From Rathayibacter sp. VKM Ac-2754 (GTDB taxonomy: Bacteria > Actinomycetota > Actinomycetes > Actinomycetales > Microbacteriaceae), in contig NZ_WUCC01000009.1 in the NCBI RefSeq assembly GCF_009807095.1, forward strand, positions 1-64,000: DNA of 64,000 nucleotides, written 5' to 3'. Below the pieces are notes generated by a model. It did not search any database. It was not told the origin of the DNA and was given only the letters and a program-made list of their open reading frames with translations. Below, one piece after another: positions 9,385 to 15,605 of the stretch. The translations under genes and the position numbers were made by a program. The stretch's first letter is position 1. Every line of letters starts with the position of its first letter.

Positions 9385-9436
9385 CATGGATCACCGATAC
9401 GCCCGCTGCGCGGGCTGCGGGCTCGATCAGCGAGGA
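9385..9436. repeat. Degenerate copy of the GATACGCC...TCGATCAGC intergenic palindrome
   Basis: Carries CGATACGCCCGCTGCGCGGGCTGCGGGCTCGATCAGC-type sequence in pieces, with a GCCCGCTGCGCGGGC stem. It overlaps the last codons of the deaminase gene. It is one of seven loci of this family in the window. Confidence 0.65.
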
Positions 9437-10416
9437 GCGGCGGCAGCGACGTATGCGTCGATCCGCGCGAGCAGCGCCTCCTGGGCGTCGGCGTCGGCCC
9501 ACGAGCCGAGCACGGAGTTGCGCGCCAGCTGCACCAGCTCCTCGCGCGTGAAGCCCGCGGCCTCCAGCGCCGCGTAGTTGTCGGCGATGTAGCCGCCGAA
9601 GTAGGCGGGGTCGTCGGAGTTGACCGTCACCCGCACCCCGCGCTCGAGGAGCGCGCGCATCTCGCCGGCCTTCATGTCGCTCGAGACGAAGGAGTTGGAC
9701 AGCGGGCAGCAGGTCAGCGCGAGTCCGCGCTCGACCAGCACCTGCACGAGCTCGGGAGCCTCGACGATGTTCGTGCCGTGGTCGATCCGGTCCACGCCGA
9801 TCTCCTCGAGCACCTGGCGGATGTGCTCGATCCCGTTCGGCTGGTCGACGTCGCAGTGCATCGTCAGGCGCAGCCCCGCCTCCCGCGCCCGCGCGAAGAC
9901 CGGGGCGAACTTCGCCGGCGGGTTGCCGCGCTCGTCCGAGTCGAGGCCCACGCCGATCAGGCGGTCGGCGTACGGCAGCGCCGCCTCGAGCGTCTCGCGA
10001 GCGCTCTCGGCCGACATGTCACGGAGGAAGCAGAGGATCAGCGAGGCGTCCACGCCGAGCGCCACCGCATCGACCGCGGCCCGGTGGTAGCCGCCGATCA
10101 CGGCGTCGAGCGGCACTCCGCGCGAAGTGTGCGCCTGCGGGTCGAAGAACGCCTCGACGCGCACCACGCCGTCGGCCGCCGCGCGCCGGAAGTACGCCGT
10201 GGCGAGGTCGTAGAAGTCCGCCTCCTCGCGCAGCACGTCCATCGCCGGGTAGTACACCGCGAGGAACGAGGCGAGCGAGTCGAAGTCGTAGGCGAGCGCC
10301 TCCGGCACGGGGAGTCCGTTGCGCTCGGCGAGCGACGCGCGCAGCTCGGGCTCGAGGGTCCCCTCGAGGTGCACGTGGAGTTCGACCTTGGGCAGTCCGA
10401 CGAGGAAGGAGGACAC
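9427..10416 (-). CDS. Adenosine/adenine-deaminase-family hydrolase with altered HAGE motif
   Basis: Metal-dependent deaminase fold, 329 residues (usual 330-350). Metal ligands are visible: H14 and H16 in ELHVHLEGT, H187, and D268/D269 in VNSDDPAYFGG. The normally invariant HAGE motif, whose Glu shuttles protons, reads HCDVDQ (187-192), so the Glu position holds Val with Asp on either side. This marks a distinct subgroup whose substrate may not be adenosine. RIDHGTNI is conserved. The GTG start has an AAAGG ribosome site. It is the last gene of an operon with RidA, an amidohydrolase and an NMT1-type ABC importer, implying it acts on an imported amino-heterocycle. Confidence 0.82.
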   Translation of the reverse strand: MSSFLVGLPKVELHVHLEGTLEPELRASLAERNGLPVPEALAYDFDSLASFLAVYYPAMDVLREEADFYDLATAYFRRAAADGVVRVEAFFDPQAHTSRGVPLDAVIGGYHRAAVDAVALGVDASLILCFLRDMSAESARETLEAALPYADRLIGVGLDSDERGNPPAKFAPVFARAREAGLRLTMHCDVDQPNGIEHIRQVLEEIGVDRIDHGTNIVEAPELVQVLVERGLALTCCPLSNSFVSSDMKAGEMRALLERGVRVTVNSDDPAYFGGYIADNYAALEAAGFTREELVQLARNSVLGSWADADAQEALLARIDAYVAAAAPR

Positions 10417-10438
10417 GGGAGCGCCTTTCGGAGGGGTG

Positions 10439-10831
10439 TCAGTGGCCGGTCGCGATGAAGTCCATCGCGACGAGGGGTCCCGGCAGGGCGGCGCCGAGCA
10501 CGGTGCGGGCGGGGGGATCGACGGGGAACCGCTCGGCGTACGCCGCGGAGGCGTCGGCGAAGTCGCGCCCGAAGTCGCTCAGGATCATCGTGATGCGCAC
10601 CACGTCGCCGAGCCCGAGCGCGAACTCGTCGGCGAGCAACCGCTCGATGTTGTCGAGGGCCGCCGTCGTCTGCGCGCCGACCCCCTCCGGGAGCGTGCCG
10701 TCGAGCGGCGAGAACGGCCCGATCGCCGAGCCGTAGACGACGCCGTGCGCCTGGACCGCGTGGCTGTAAGCGCCCCGGGGAGCGCCGAGCGCCTCCGCCG
10801 TCACGAATCGACGGACCTCCGAGACGGTCAT
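10439..10831 (-). CDS. RidA/YjgF-family protein
   Basis: A 130-residue RidA-family protein. RidA proteins hydrolyse reactive enamine/imine intermediates produced by PLP or amine-oxidising enzymes; related family members act in pyrimidine and aminophenol breakdown. Typical features are YSHAVQAHGVVYGSAIGP near the N-terminus, TTAALDNIERLL in the middle, and the C-terminal PPARTVLGAALPGPLVAMDFIA strand. The Arg in PARTVLG matches the position that holds ligand carboxylates in active RidA. It overlaps the amidohydrolase stop by 4 bp and precedes the deaminase gene by 22 bp. Confidence 0.85.
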   Translation of the reverse strand: MTVSEVRRFVTAEALGAPRGAYSHAVQAHGVVYGSAIGPFSPLDGTLPEGVGAQTTAALDNIERLLADEFALGLGDVVRITMILSDFGRDFADASAAYAERFPVDPPARTVLGAALPGPLVAMDFIATGH

Positions 10832-13696: not shown

Positions 13697-14496
13697 GCGT
13701 CGTCCTCCATCGCGACACCGTGCTGCGAGAAGAGCAGGTCGGTGATGCGGTCCTCGATCGCGTGGAACTCGGGGCTGCGCAGCATCTCGACCGTGCGGGG
13801 CCGCGGCAGGTTGATCTCGATCACCTCGACGATGCGCCCCGGGCGGGGCGACATCACGGCGACGGTGTCCGAGAGGAGGATCGCCTCGGCGATCCCGTGC
13901 GTCACCATCAGCGTGGTCGCGGGTCGTGCGGTCCAGATCCGCTGCAGCTCGAGGTTGAGCCGCTGACGCGTCATGTCGTCGAGCGCGCCGAACGGCTCGT
14001 CGAGCAGCAGCAGGTCGGGCTGCACCACGAGGGCGCGGGCGATGGAGGCGCGCTGGCGCATGCCTCCCGAGAGCTGCGACGGGTAGGCGTCCTCGAAGCC
14101 GCTCAGCCCGACGAGGTCGAGCAGATCGGGGATGCTGTCGCGCTTGCTCGCCTGGCGGGTGAGCTCGAGCGGAAGTCGCACGTTCGAGCGCACCGAGCGC
14201 CAGGGCAGCAGAGCCGAGTCCTGGAAAGCGATGCCCAGCTCGGCGGAGCGCTTCGTGCCGACGACCGGGGTGCCGTGGATCGAGACGGAGCCGGTGGTCG
14301 GCTTCTCGAGCCCCGCCAGCATCCGCAGGATCGTCGACTTGCCGCAGCCGGAGGGGCCGAGCAGCGACAGGAACGACCCGCGCGGGGTGACGAGGTCGAC
14401 CTCGGCGAGCGCCTGCACCGAGCGCGATCCCAGATCGAAGCGCTTGCTCAGCCCGCTCAGGCGGATGCCCTCGGTGGCGTTCTCGATGGTGCTCAA
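13693..14496 (-). CDS. ABC transporter ATP-binding protein (SsuB/TauB/ThiZ-type)
   Basis: A 267-residue ATPase with Walker A GPSGCGKST, Q loop (AFQDSALLPWRSV), signature LSGGMRQR, Walker B LLLLDEPFGALD and switch His in VTHGIAEA. I choose a TTG start at 14496: GAGAGG lies eight bases upstream and the first beta strand follows directly; no ATG or GTG fits in frame near it. It powers the two permeases encoded downstream. The gene overlaps the next by 4 bp, so the operon is tightly coupled. Confidence 0.9.
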   Translation of the reverse strand: MSTIENATEGIRLSGLSKRFDLGSRSVQALAEVDLVTPRGSFLSLLGPSGCGKSTILRMLAGLEKPTTGSVSIHGTPVVGTKRSAELGIAFQDSALLPWRSVRSNVRLPLELTRQASKRDSIPDLLDLVGLSGFEDAYPSQLSGGMRQRASIARALVVQPDLLLLDEPFGALDDMTRQRLNLELQRIWTARPATTLMVTHGIAEAILLSDTVAVMSPRPGRIVEVIEINLPRPRTVEMLRSPEFHAIEDRITDLLFSQHGVAMEDDA

Positions 14497-14543
14497 CTGC
14501 TCGTCCTCTCCGCGCGGGTCAGGTTCTCGGGCGTGCTCGGGGC

Positions 14544-15605
14544 TCAGCCCTCGAGCAGCTCCGGGTGCTCCTCGTAGACCTCGTCGATCAGCGTCGTGTC
14601 GAAGAGGTCGTCGGCGTCGAGCTCGATGCCGGTCAGCGCGAGCGACTCGACCGACTGCTCCTGCAGCTCCGGCGTGATCGTGAGCAGGCCGTTCTCGTCG
14701 GTGTCGGGGGTGACGATGAGCCCGGTCTGGGTCGTCATGACCTGCGCCTGCTCCTCGACCTTGTAGTTCTGGTCGGCCGCGTAGTCGGCGACGACGGTCT
14801 CGGCGGTGGCCTCGGGGTCGGCGACGGCGTCCTTCCAGCCGCGGGCGACCGCGTACAGCAGCGCCTTGACCTTCTCGCGCTCGTCGTCGATGCTCTCCTG
14901 CGCCACGACGATGGTCTCGCCGACCATCGGCAGGCCGGTGTCGGCGAGCAGGAACTGCTGCGCCGAGAAGCCGCGCTGGTTGAGCGTGTTGGCGCCCGAG
15001 GTCGCGTAGCCGATGTAGCCGTCGACCTGGCCGGTGGTGAGCAGCGTGGAGTCGGTGAGCGGCACGCGGTCGATCTCGGACTCGTCGATGTCGTTCGCGG
15101 CGAGGAACGCGCGCCAGACCAGGTCGTTGCTGTCGCTGACTCCGATGGTCTTGCCGACCATGTCCTGCGGAGTCTCGATCGGGGCGTCGGTGAGCGAGAC
15201 GATCGCGAAGGGGTTCTTCTGGTAGGTCGCGCCGACGATCTTCATCTCGGCGCCCTCCGAGATCGCGGGGCCGGTGATCAGCGGCGACGAGACGCCGGCG
15301 AAGGCCGATCCGCTCGCGATGGCGGTCTCGGCGCCGGTCGCGCCGGTGCCTCCGGGGGTCAGGGTGACGGAGTCGAAGCCCGCGTCGGCGAAGTAGCCGT
15401 TCGCGTCGGCGAGGTACTCGCCCGCGAACTCGACGTGGGGCACCCACGAGAGCTGCATCGTGGCCTCGCCGAACGAACCGTCCTCGCTGGAGGCGGCCGC
15501 GTCGGATCCGCTCGAGCAGGCGGTGAGTGCGGTGGTGGTCGCGAGGGCGACGGCGAGCGCGCCGAGCAGCGCGCGGCGGCGGCGGGCGGGAGTGGTCTGG
15601 GGCAT
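14544..15605 (-). CDS. ABC substrate-binding lipoprotein, NMT1/THI5-like
   Basis: A 353-residue periplasmic-type binding protein with a lipoprotein signal (LTACSSG). The mature N-terminus, MQLSWVPHVEFAGEYLADANGYF, fits the NMT1/THI5-like group that binds thiamine-pyrimidine precursors, other pyrimidines, riboflavin or sulfonates. GGTGATGAETAI provides the usual ligand-contact loop. It is the first gene of the seven-gene operon and should define the imported compound. A pyrimidine or other amino-heterocycle fits the deaminase and amidohydrolase downstream, but the ligand is not deducible. Confidence 0.88.
   Translation of the reverse strand: MPQTTPARRRRALLGALAVALATTTALTACSSGSDAAASSEDGSFGEATMQLSWVPHVEFAGEYLADANGYFADAGFDSVTLTPGGTGATGAETAIASGSAFAGVSSPLITGPAISEGAEMKIVGATYQKNPFAIVSLTDAPIETPQDMVGKTIGVSDSNDLVWRAFLAANDIDESEIDRVPLTDSTLLTTGQVDGYIGYATSGANTLNQRGFSAQQFLLADTGLPMVGETIVVAQESIDDEREKVKALLYAVARGWKDAVADPEATAETVVADYAADQNYKVEEQAQVMTTQTGLIVTPDTDENGLLTITPELQEQSVESLALTGIELDADDLFDTTLIDEVYEEHPELLEG

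What the first reader, a model, noticed from the sequence alone, without database searches (positions are those of the whole stretch)
9427..15605. Candidate new heterocycle uptake and breakdown cassette
Seven coupled genes join an NMT1/THI5-like importer, an amidohydrolase, a RidA protein and a deaminase of the adenosine-deaminase fold, facing a PucR regulator. Known thiamine-pyrimidine salvage (ThiXYZ with YlmB and TenA) uses other enzymes. The set implies import of an amino-heterocycle, amide cleavage, deamination and clean-up of an imine intermediate. I know of no described pathway with this exact set.
Basis: partly seen in the sequence, partly recalled or inferred. Interest (0 to 1): 0.72.

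Follow-up and report, generated by a model that had tools for sequence, protein, structure and literature searches.

The report
Purine uptake cassette, Glu-less deaminase
A Rathayibacter bacterium carries a seven-gene unit that most likely imports a purine-like compound and strips its amino group for use, with a deaminase of a widespread type that has lost the usual catalytic acid.

Summary
The seven-gene operon and facing PucR gene are real and intact. The genus is Rathayibacter; the 6.2-kb unit recurs in 10 of 15 genomes searched there. The context is purine catabolism: of 20 sampled loci of the importer family, 10 hold xanthine dehydrogenase and 15 hold it or an ADA-fold/AdeC gene. Of 80 deaminase relatives, 29 have a purine gene in the stretch held, 37 a purine gene or the importer, 43 neither. 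The amidohydrolase is rare (7 of 297 genomes) and beside importer genes in 5 of the 7. The surprise is the deaminase: metal ligands and general-base His are kept, but the catalytic HAGE Glu is replaced by H[CA]D[IV]DQ in 80 of 80 loci from Actinomycetota and Bacillota, one clade. NCBI's model TIGR01430 still accepts it as adenosine deaminase. Best reading: import and deamination of a 6-aminopurine; amidohydrolase and RidA perhaps trim a conjugate. Ligand unknown. New variant of a known kind.

The parts
7740..9287 (+). PucR-family regulator (PucR N-terminal, GGDEF-like, PucR HTH), convergent with the operon
   Evidence: a homologue lies by the unit in L079 and L082 but none was found near L080/L081; PucR homologues lie in the stretch around the amidohydrolase also in L057, L061, L225, L230, L246
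9427..10416 (-). ADA-fold (cog1816, adenine-deaminase-like) protein; HCDVDQ at H187 in place of HAGE; H14, H16, H187, D268 and H213 kept
   Evidence: model mean pLDDT 94.2
10439..10831 (-). RidA/YjgF-family protein
   Evidence: PF01042, 50.6 bits; 43 bits to 3k0t, PAR stretch kept
10828..12042 (-). COG1228-type (recalled) binuclear amidohydrolase; nearest solved relatives are Arg carboxypeptidases 3be7, 3mtw
   Evidence: H58, H60, K179, H220, H240, D310 invariant in 14 of 14 aligned rows, window included
12045..12893 (-). ABC permease (second)
12890..13696 (-). ABC permease (first)
13693..14496 (-). ABC ATPase
   Evidence: start chosen from the sequence
14544..15605 (-). NMT1/THI5-like lipoprotein substrate-binding protein
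   Evidence: 134 bits; family profile finds 4nmy 103 bits, ThiY 3ix1 62, THI5 43, taurine binder 27.5, SsuA 23

Best explanation
A PucR-linked purine uptake and deamination unit. Inferred steps: the lipoprotein and ABC importer bring in a 6-aminopurine or a conjugated form of one; the binuclear amidohydrolase removes an amide- or ureido-linked group; the ADA-fold protein replaces the 6-amino (or substituted amino) group by oxygen; RidA hydrolyses a reactive enamine or imine side product; the oxopurine feeds the xanthine dehydrogenase and uricase encoded elsewhere in the genome. Shown: the gene set, its conservation, the purine context, the intact metal sites, and the loss of the catalytic Glu with a conserved replacement loop. 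Inferred: ligand, step order, and that an Asp or Gln of the new loop acts as proton relay.
For: Of 20 loci holding relatives of the binding protein, 10 hold Xdh and 15 hold Xdh or an ADA-fold/AdeC gene; Xdh-type genes number 18 in 15 genus genomes of 3-5 Mb, so chance is below 1% per 20-kb locus (my arithmetic). HCD-type and HAGE-type deaminases take the same slot after SBP-ATPase-permease-permease: HCD in L052, L053, L054, L058, L060, HAGE in L062, L065; L053, L060 and L065 have Xdh genes near. Six Cryobacterium loci (two of them on one chromosome) have Xdh, importer, HCD gene, GuaD-like and uricase genes in one run. AdeC lies in the stretch held in 14 of 80 HCD loci. The own genome has Xdh, XdhC, GuaD-like, uricase and a second PucR on C13, no AdeC, and 3 of its 5 ADA-fold genes lie within 10 kb of one of its 8 NMT1 genes. 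The amidohydrolase occurs in 7 of 297 genomes of the order, all 7 among the 58 with this binding-protein family, next to importer genes in 5 of the 7.
Against: In 43 of 80 HCD loci none of the tested purine or importer genes lies in the stretch held; neighbours annotated in Vagococcus, Enterococcus, Anaerosphaera and Hungatella are not purine genes. The control set of 18 HAGE-type loci has the importer in 6 and Xdh in only 1. Loss of the HxxE glutamate argues against plain adenine deamination. HAGE-type genes coexist with the HCD gene in several genomes, and AdeC with an adenosine-deaminase-like gene lies near it in L057, L061, L095, so a simple adenine role would be redundant there; conversely in 3 of 13 genomes (those of L115, L129, L132) it is the only ADA-fold gene found, which could mean an adenosine role. 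RidA is unexplained by plain adenine breakdown. The D-aminoacylase and dehydratase-like genes of sister cassettes fit an amino-acid conjugate. No activity or binding was measured.
Confidence: 0.6

Rival explanations
1. Thiamine-pyrimidine salvage like ThiXYZ-YlmB-TenA: the importer takes in N-formyl-aminopyrimidine and the amidohydrolase deacylates it.
For: The binding-protein family is closest to 4nmy, ThiY 3ix1 and THI5 among solved structures; an amidohydrolase is present.
Against: No TenA or other thiamine gene among the eight proteins of the unit or the neighbours that were annotated (TenA was not searched for by name); recurrent neighbours are purine genes and PucR.
Confidence: 0.08
2. 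The HCD-type protein is a substrate-sensing or degenerate paralogue, not a deaminase; only importer and amidohydrolase do the work.
For: The glutamate that protonates the substrate ring in related deaminases (PMC12828455, passages read) is absent.
Against: Metal ligands, the general-base His and the second Asp are invariant, the replacement loop is strictly kept (D189, D191, Q192 in 43 of 43 rows), and the clade spans two phyla: this looks like changed, not lost, catalysis.
Confidence: 0.12
3. The unit degrades an amino-acid or peptide conjugate unrelated to purines; the ADA-fold protein acts on a non-purine amine.
For: The amidohydrolase is nearest to Arg carboxypeptidases and an Xaa-Pro dipeptidase model; sister cassettes add a D-aminoacylase-like and, in L225/L227, a D-serine-dehydratase-like enzyme.
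Against: Purine genes or PucR recur around amidohydrolase, importer and ADA-fold gene in different families.
Confidence: 0.15

Closest known systems
Adenine deaminases of the ADA fold, PDB 3ou8/3pan/3pao/3pbm and 3rys (deposited as adenosine deaminase; adenine specificity recalled, not from a call)
   Same: Relatives over nearly the whole length (283.6 and 247 bits); HxH, His, HG, SDDP and GLDS-E motifs shared
   Different: Catalytic HAGE Glu missing; loop HCDxDQ two residues longer in the gapped alignments; N216 for Arg, W306 for Phe against 13 HAGE rows; separate clade from those rows
ThiXYZ/ThiY aminopyrimidine importer
   Same: NMT1/THI5-like binding protein and ABC importer
   Different: Purine-gene context; no thiamine gene among annotated neighbours
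Actinobacterial purine catabolism clusters (Xdh, uricase, guanine deaminase, PucR)
   Same: Same regulator family; importer and ADA-fold genes lie in such clusters in other genera
   Different: Here importer and deaminase lie apart from Xdh/uricase and are joined to an amidohydrolase and RidA
Peptidase-like amidohydrolases 3be7, 3mtw; phenylurea and molinate hydrolases as remoter kin
   Same: Binuclear ligand set including the lysine
   Different: Rare subgroup linked to importer, PucR and purine genes; substrate unknown
Rut pyrimidine pathway (RutB amidohydrolase with RutC, a RidA-family protein; recalled)
   Same: Amidohydrolase plus RidA-family logic; RutC model hits at 30 bits
   Different: Far below the RutC cut-off of 169 bits; different amidohydrolase (recalled)

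Membership tests
Adenosine deaminase (NCBIfam TIGR01430 equivalog) | Score over curated cut-off 216.55 | tested here: met
   322.5 bits; eight further HCD- and HAGE-type proteins also pass
Adenosine/adenine deaminase of the ADA fold | Catalytic Glu in HxxE after strand 5 | tested here: not met
   HCDVDQ; the Glu faces V/I or Q depending on the alignment; absent in 80 of 80 loci; the other four ADA-fold genes of the genome keep it
Adenosine/adenine deaminase of the ADA fold | Metal ligands HxH, H, D and general-base His | tested here: met
   H14, H16, H187, D268, H213 invariant in 21 of 21 rows
NF006850 subfamily (holds HAGE-type neighbours) | Score over cut-off 419 | tested here: not met
   379 for the window, 392-414 for five other HCD proteins; three HAGE types 430, 467, 478
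Purine catabolism unit | Genomic link with Xdh/uricase/GuaD/AdeC/PucR | tested here: met
   not universal (43 of 80 loci without)
Purine catabolism unit | Purine binding or turnover | not testable with these tools
   needs biochemistry
ThiXYZ-YlmB-TenA salvage | TenA or thiamine genes linked | tested here: not met
   none among the eight proteins or the five window genes at 16-21 kb scanned; the side at 3.5-7.6 kb was not scanned
Aliphatic sulfonate importer (SsuA, TIGR01728) | Score over cut-off 163.5 | tested here: not met
   41 bits
Xaa-Pro dipeptidase NF051886 | Score over cut-off 500 | tested here: not met
   207.5 bits
Rid family detoxifying hydrolase TIGR00004 | Score over cut-off 106.25 | tested here: not met
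   47 bits; Pfam PF01042 met at 50.6 bits: a divergent Rid protein

The most novel reading that the evidence does not exclude
The HCD clade is an unrecognised purine hydrolase with a different proton relay (Asp/Gln loop in place of Glu), made for modified 6-aminopurines whose ring nitrogen or 6-amino group is substituted, such as 1-methyladenine or the N6-threonylcarbamoyl or glycylcarbamoyl base from tRNA. The amidohydrolase splits the amide or ureido link and RidA clears the aminoacrylate or imine derived from the freed amino acid, so the unit salvages modified tRNA bases; the sister cassettes with D-aminoacylase-like and D-serine-dehydratase-like enzymes would be variants.
Probability: 0.15. 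Interest if true: 0.82.

Novelty: new variant of a known kind. Interest (0 to 1): 0.55.

Why it matters
If right, it gives a concrete importer, amidohydrolase and deaminase set for purine or modified-purine use in Actinomycetota. It also exposes a conserved deaminase clade, seen here in lactobacilli, pediococci, a bifidobacterium, an enterococcus, Nocardia and others, that NCBI's equivalog model accepts as adenosine deaminase although the catalytic glutamate is missing. Such names feed purine-metabolism models, so an assay of one member would correct or confirm many genomes, and would test whether this fold can deaminate without its ring-protonating acid.

Tried and rejected
Thiamine salvage and sulfonate uptake were considered and disfavoured. 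That the Glu loss is a private mutation of this genome was rejected: it holds in 80 of 80 loci and the clade has 100/100 support. That RidA is a general part of the cassette was rejected: a homologue of it was found only at the Rathayibacter loci (thresholds 45-80 bits). Plain adenosine deamination seems unlikely because the protein groups with adenine-type relatives and shares HLEG with them (meaning recalled), but is not excluded. That the D-aminoacylase and dehydratase belong to the unit itself was dropped: they are absent here. Fold comparison with solved structures could not be run; the viral library gave nothing that I could use. The promoter/terminator scan gave nothing above chance. 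Literature searches. In the titles and abstract starts shown I saw no Glu-less cog1816 clade and no NMT1-type purine importer; 'cog1816' occurs in 1 paper of the library. Papers opened: PMC12828455 (outline, abstract, passages), PMC13296781 (passages), PMC13054789 (term search giving one reference-list hit); for the rest listings only.
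Full report
What is there. The window lies at G000:C24:1-64000 of a 3.97-Mb genome. Seven minus-strand genes run SBP, ATPase, two permeases, amidohydrolase, RidA, ADA-fold protein, with 4-base overlaps at three junctions and gaps of 47, 2 and 22 bases at the others. A PucR-family gene faces them tail to tail. The 6.2-kb unit is present nearly whole in 10 of 15 genus genomes, the own one included (in G594 in two adjacent pieces); the other 5 show no match of that length.

The deaminase is not a standard one. Its nearest solved relatives are 3ou8 and 3rys. 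H14, H16, H187, D268 and H213 are kept, but the HAGE motif is HCDVDQ. In 21 Microbacteriaceae rows C188, D189, D191 and Q192 are invariant. In a wider alignment of 43 HCD and 13 HAGE rows, D189, D191 and Q192 are 43 of 43 in the first set, C188 is 41 of 43, and N216 and W306 stand for Arg and Phe. Depending on the alignment the Glu faces V/I or Q. HCD rows form one clade with 100/100 support, from Actinomycetota and Bacillota. A divergent relative reads HCDLHQ. The four other ADA-fold genes of this genome keep HxxE. PMC12828455 (passages) describes Asp, His and Glu as the conserved machinery of guanine- and cytosine-deaminase-type enzymes, the Glu protonating the ring. TIGR01430 accepts the HCD proteins as adenosine deaminase, while NF006850 accepts the three HAGE types tested and none of the six HCD types tested. 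The AlphaFold model is confident (mean pLDDT 94.2), but no coordinates could be read.

Purine context of the deaminase. Among the 80 loci, 20 hold the complete importer, 11 Xdh, 8 XdhC, 6 uricase, 8 guanine-deaminase-like, 14 AdeC, 15 a purine-permease homologue, 5 the amidohydrolase, 4 RidA, 5 PucR; 29 hold some purine gene, 37 a purine gene or the importer, and 43 neither (flanks up to 10 kb, some contigs shorter; the 80 include close relatives and two loci of one Cryobacterium chromosome). The 18 HAGE-type loci fetched as a comparison hold the importer in 6, a purine-permease homologue in 2 and Xdh in 1. Among 20 Microbacteriaceae HCD loci from G-handle genomes, 10 have the importer, and so does the window; some of these are the same genomes as. 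Examples: six Cryobacterium loci have Xdh, importer, HCD gene, GuaD-like and uricase genes in a row. Nonomuraea dietziae (L155) and Microtetraspora (L119) have NCS1 permease, AdeC and the HCD gene end to end, but four other Nonomuraea loci (L137, L138, L145, L149) do not. AdeC with a purine permease lies by the HCD gene in 10 of the 15 Lactobacillaceae loci and in Bifidobacterium L115. Acidipropionibacterium L107 has two GuaB-type genes before it. Neighbours annotated in Vagococcus, Enterococcus, Anaerosphaera, Hungatella and two lactobacilli (L132, L158) are not purine genes. HCD and HAGE types take the same slot after the second permease: HCD in L052, L053, L054, L058, L060 and HAGE in L062, L065. 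In 3 of 13 genomes asked, the HCD gene is the only ADA-fold gene found; in others it coexists with HAGE-type or adenosine-deaminase-like genes.

Purine context of the importer. In 297 genomes of the order, 58 have a relative of the binding protein at E<=1e-45. I fetched 20 loci (of 68 matches listed), chosen by hand to spread over rank and genus. Xdh lies in the stretch in 10 of 20; a further 5 have an ADA-fold or AdeC gene; L242 has only a purine-permease homologue; L226, L228, L229 and L244 show none (L226 ends at a contig end). The family profile prefers 4nmy (103 bits), ThiY (62) and THI5 (43) to taurine (27.5) and sulfonate (23) binders.

The amidohydrolase. H58, H60, K179, H220, H240 and D310 are invariant in 14 of 14 rows; it resembles Arg carboxypeptidases and, more remotely, phenylurea and molinate hydrolases. 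It is rare: 7 of 297 genomes at E<=1e-110, all 7 among the 58 above. Importer genes lie beside it in 5 of these 7 (window, L225, L227, L230, L246) and not in L245, L247. An ADA-fold or AdeC gene is in the stretch in the window, L225, L227, L230 and L247 (28% identity, motif unresolved), and also in L057, L061, L095; none was found in L245 or the short L246. PucR is in the stretch in the window, L057, L061, L225, L230, L246. L225, L227 and L230 add a D-aminoacylase-like gene, and L225 and L227 (one genus) a D-serine-dehydratase-like gene.

Own genome. It holds 8 NMT1-family and 5 ADA-fold genes, and three pairs lie within 10 kb: the window, C23 and C2. With eight 20-kb zones in 3.97 Mb the chance per gene is about 4%, so three of five is unlikely by chance (my arithmetic). 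Xdh, XdhC, a guanine-deaminase-like gene, uricase, MoeA and another PucR lie within 18 kb on C13. AdeC was not found.

Reading. The unit most likely imports a purine-type compound and removes its 6-amino group, feeding the C13 oxidation genes. The amidohydrolase and RidA suggest that the natural ligand is a conjugate, or that breakdown yields a reactive enamine; this is inference. Because HCD genes often coexist with HAGE-type genes or AdeC, their substrate may be a modified purine rather than adenine. The invariant loop suggests an Asp or Gln proton relay. Activity, ligand and order of steps remain untested.

Known or new. Each gene family is known. In the listings (open-access library; titles and abstract starts) I saw neither the combination, nor an NMT1-type importer tied to purine genes, nor the Glu-less clade; subscription papers are mostly not held. 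I file it as a new variant of a known kind.

Noticed in passing
L040:9067-12179 (G000:C2:543066-546178): A third NMT1-type importer directly followed by an ADA-fold gene (34% to the window's, Glu kept) in the same genome.
   Followed up: partly
L039 (G000:C23:62000-80000): Paralogous importer (binding protein 43%) about 7 kb from a HAGE-type adenine-deaminase-like gene.
   Followed up: partly
L225:2696-7523, L227:3340-7237, L230:12315-15823: Sister cassettes with D-aminoacylase-like and, in L225/L227, D-serine-dehydratase-like genes between importer and amidohydrolase.
   Followed up: partly
L057:8148-19001 and L061:8108-19001: Three ADA-fold genes of three motif types (HAGEEGG, HCDVDQ, HAGESSG) plus AdeC and the amidohydrolase within about 11 kb.
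   Followed up: partly
L217 (genome of L158, Lactobacillus sp. W8174): A divergent second member of the HCD clade with HCDLHQ, i.e. the otherwise invariant second Asp changed.
   Followed up: no
L095:8853-9980: An acyl-CoA-dehydrogenase-like gene ends at the start of an HCD-type gene in Microbacterium rhizomatis; role unclear.
   Followed up: no
window 16064-17496: Protein with AHSA1/SRPBCC-type domains next to an ArsR-type HTH gene.
   Followed up: no
L231:10906-11973: An ADA-fold gene sits between the binding-protein gene and the ATPase gene of a related importer; its loop motif was not resolved by the script.
   Followed up: no
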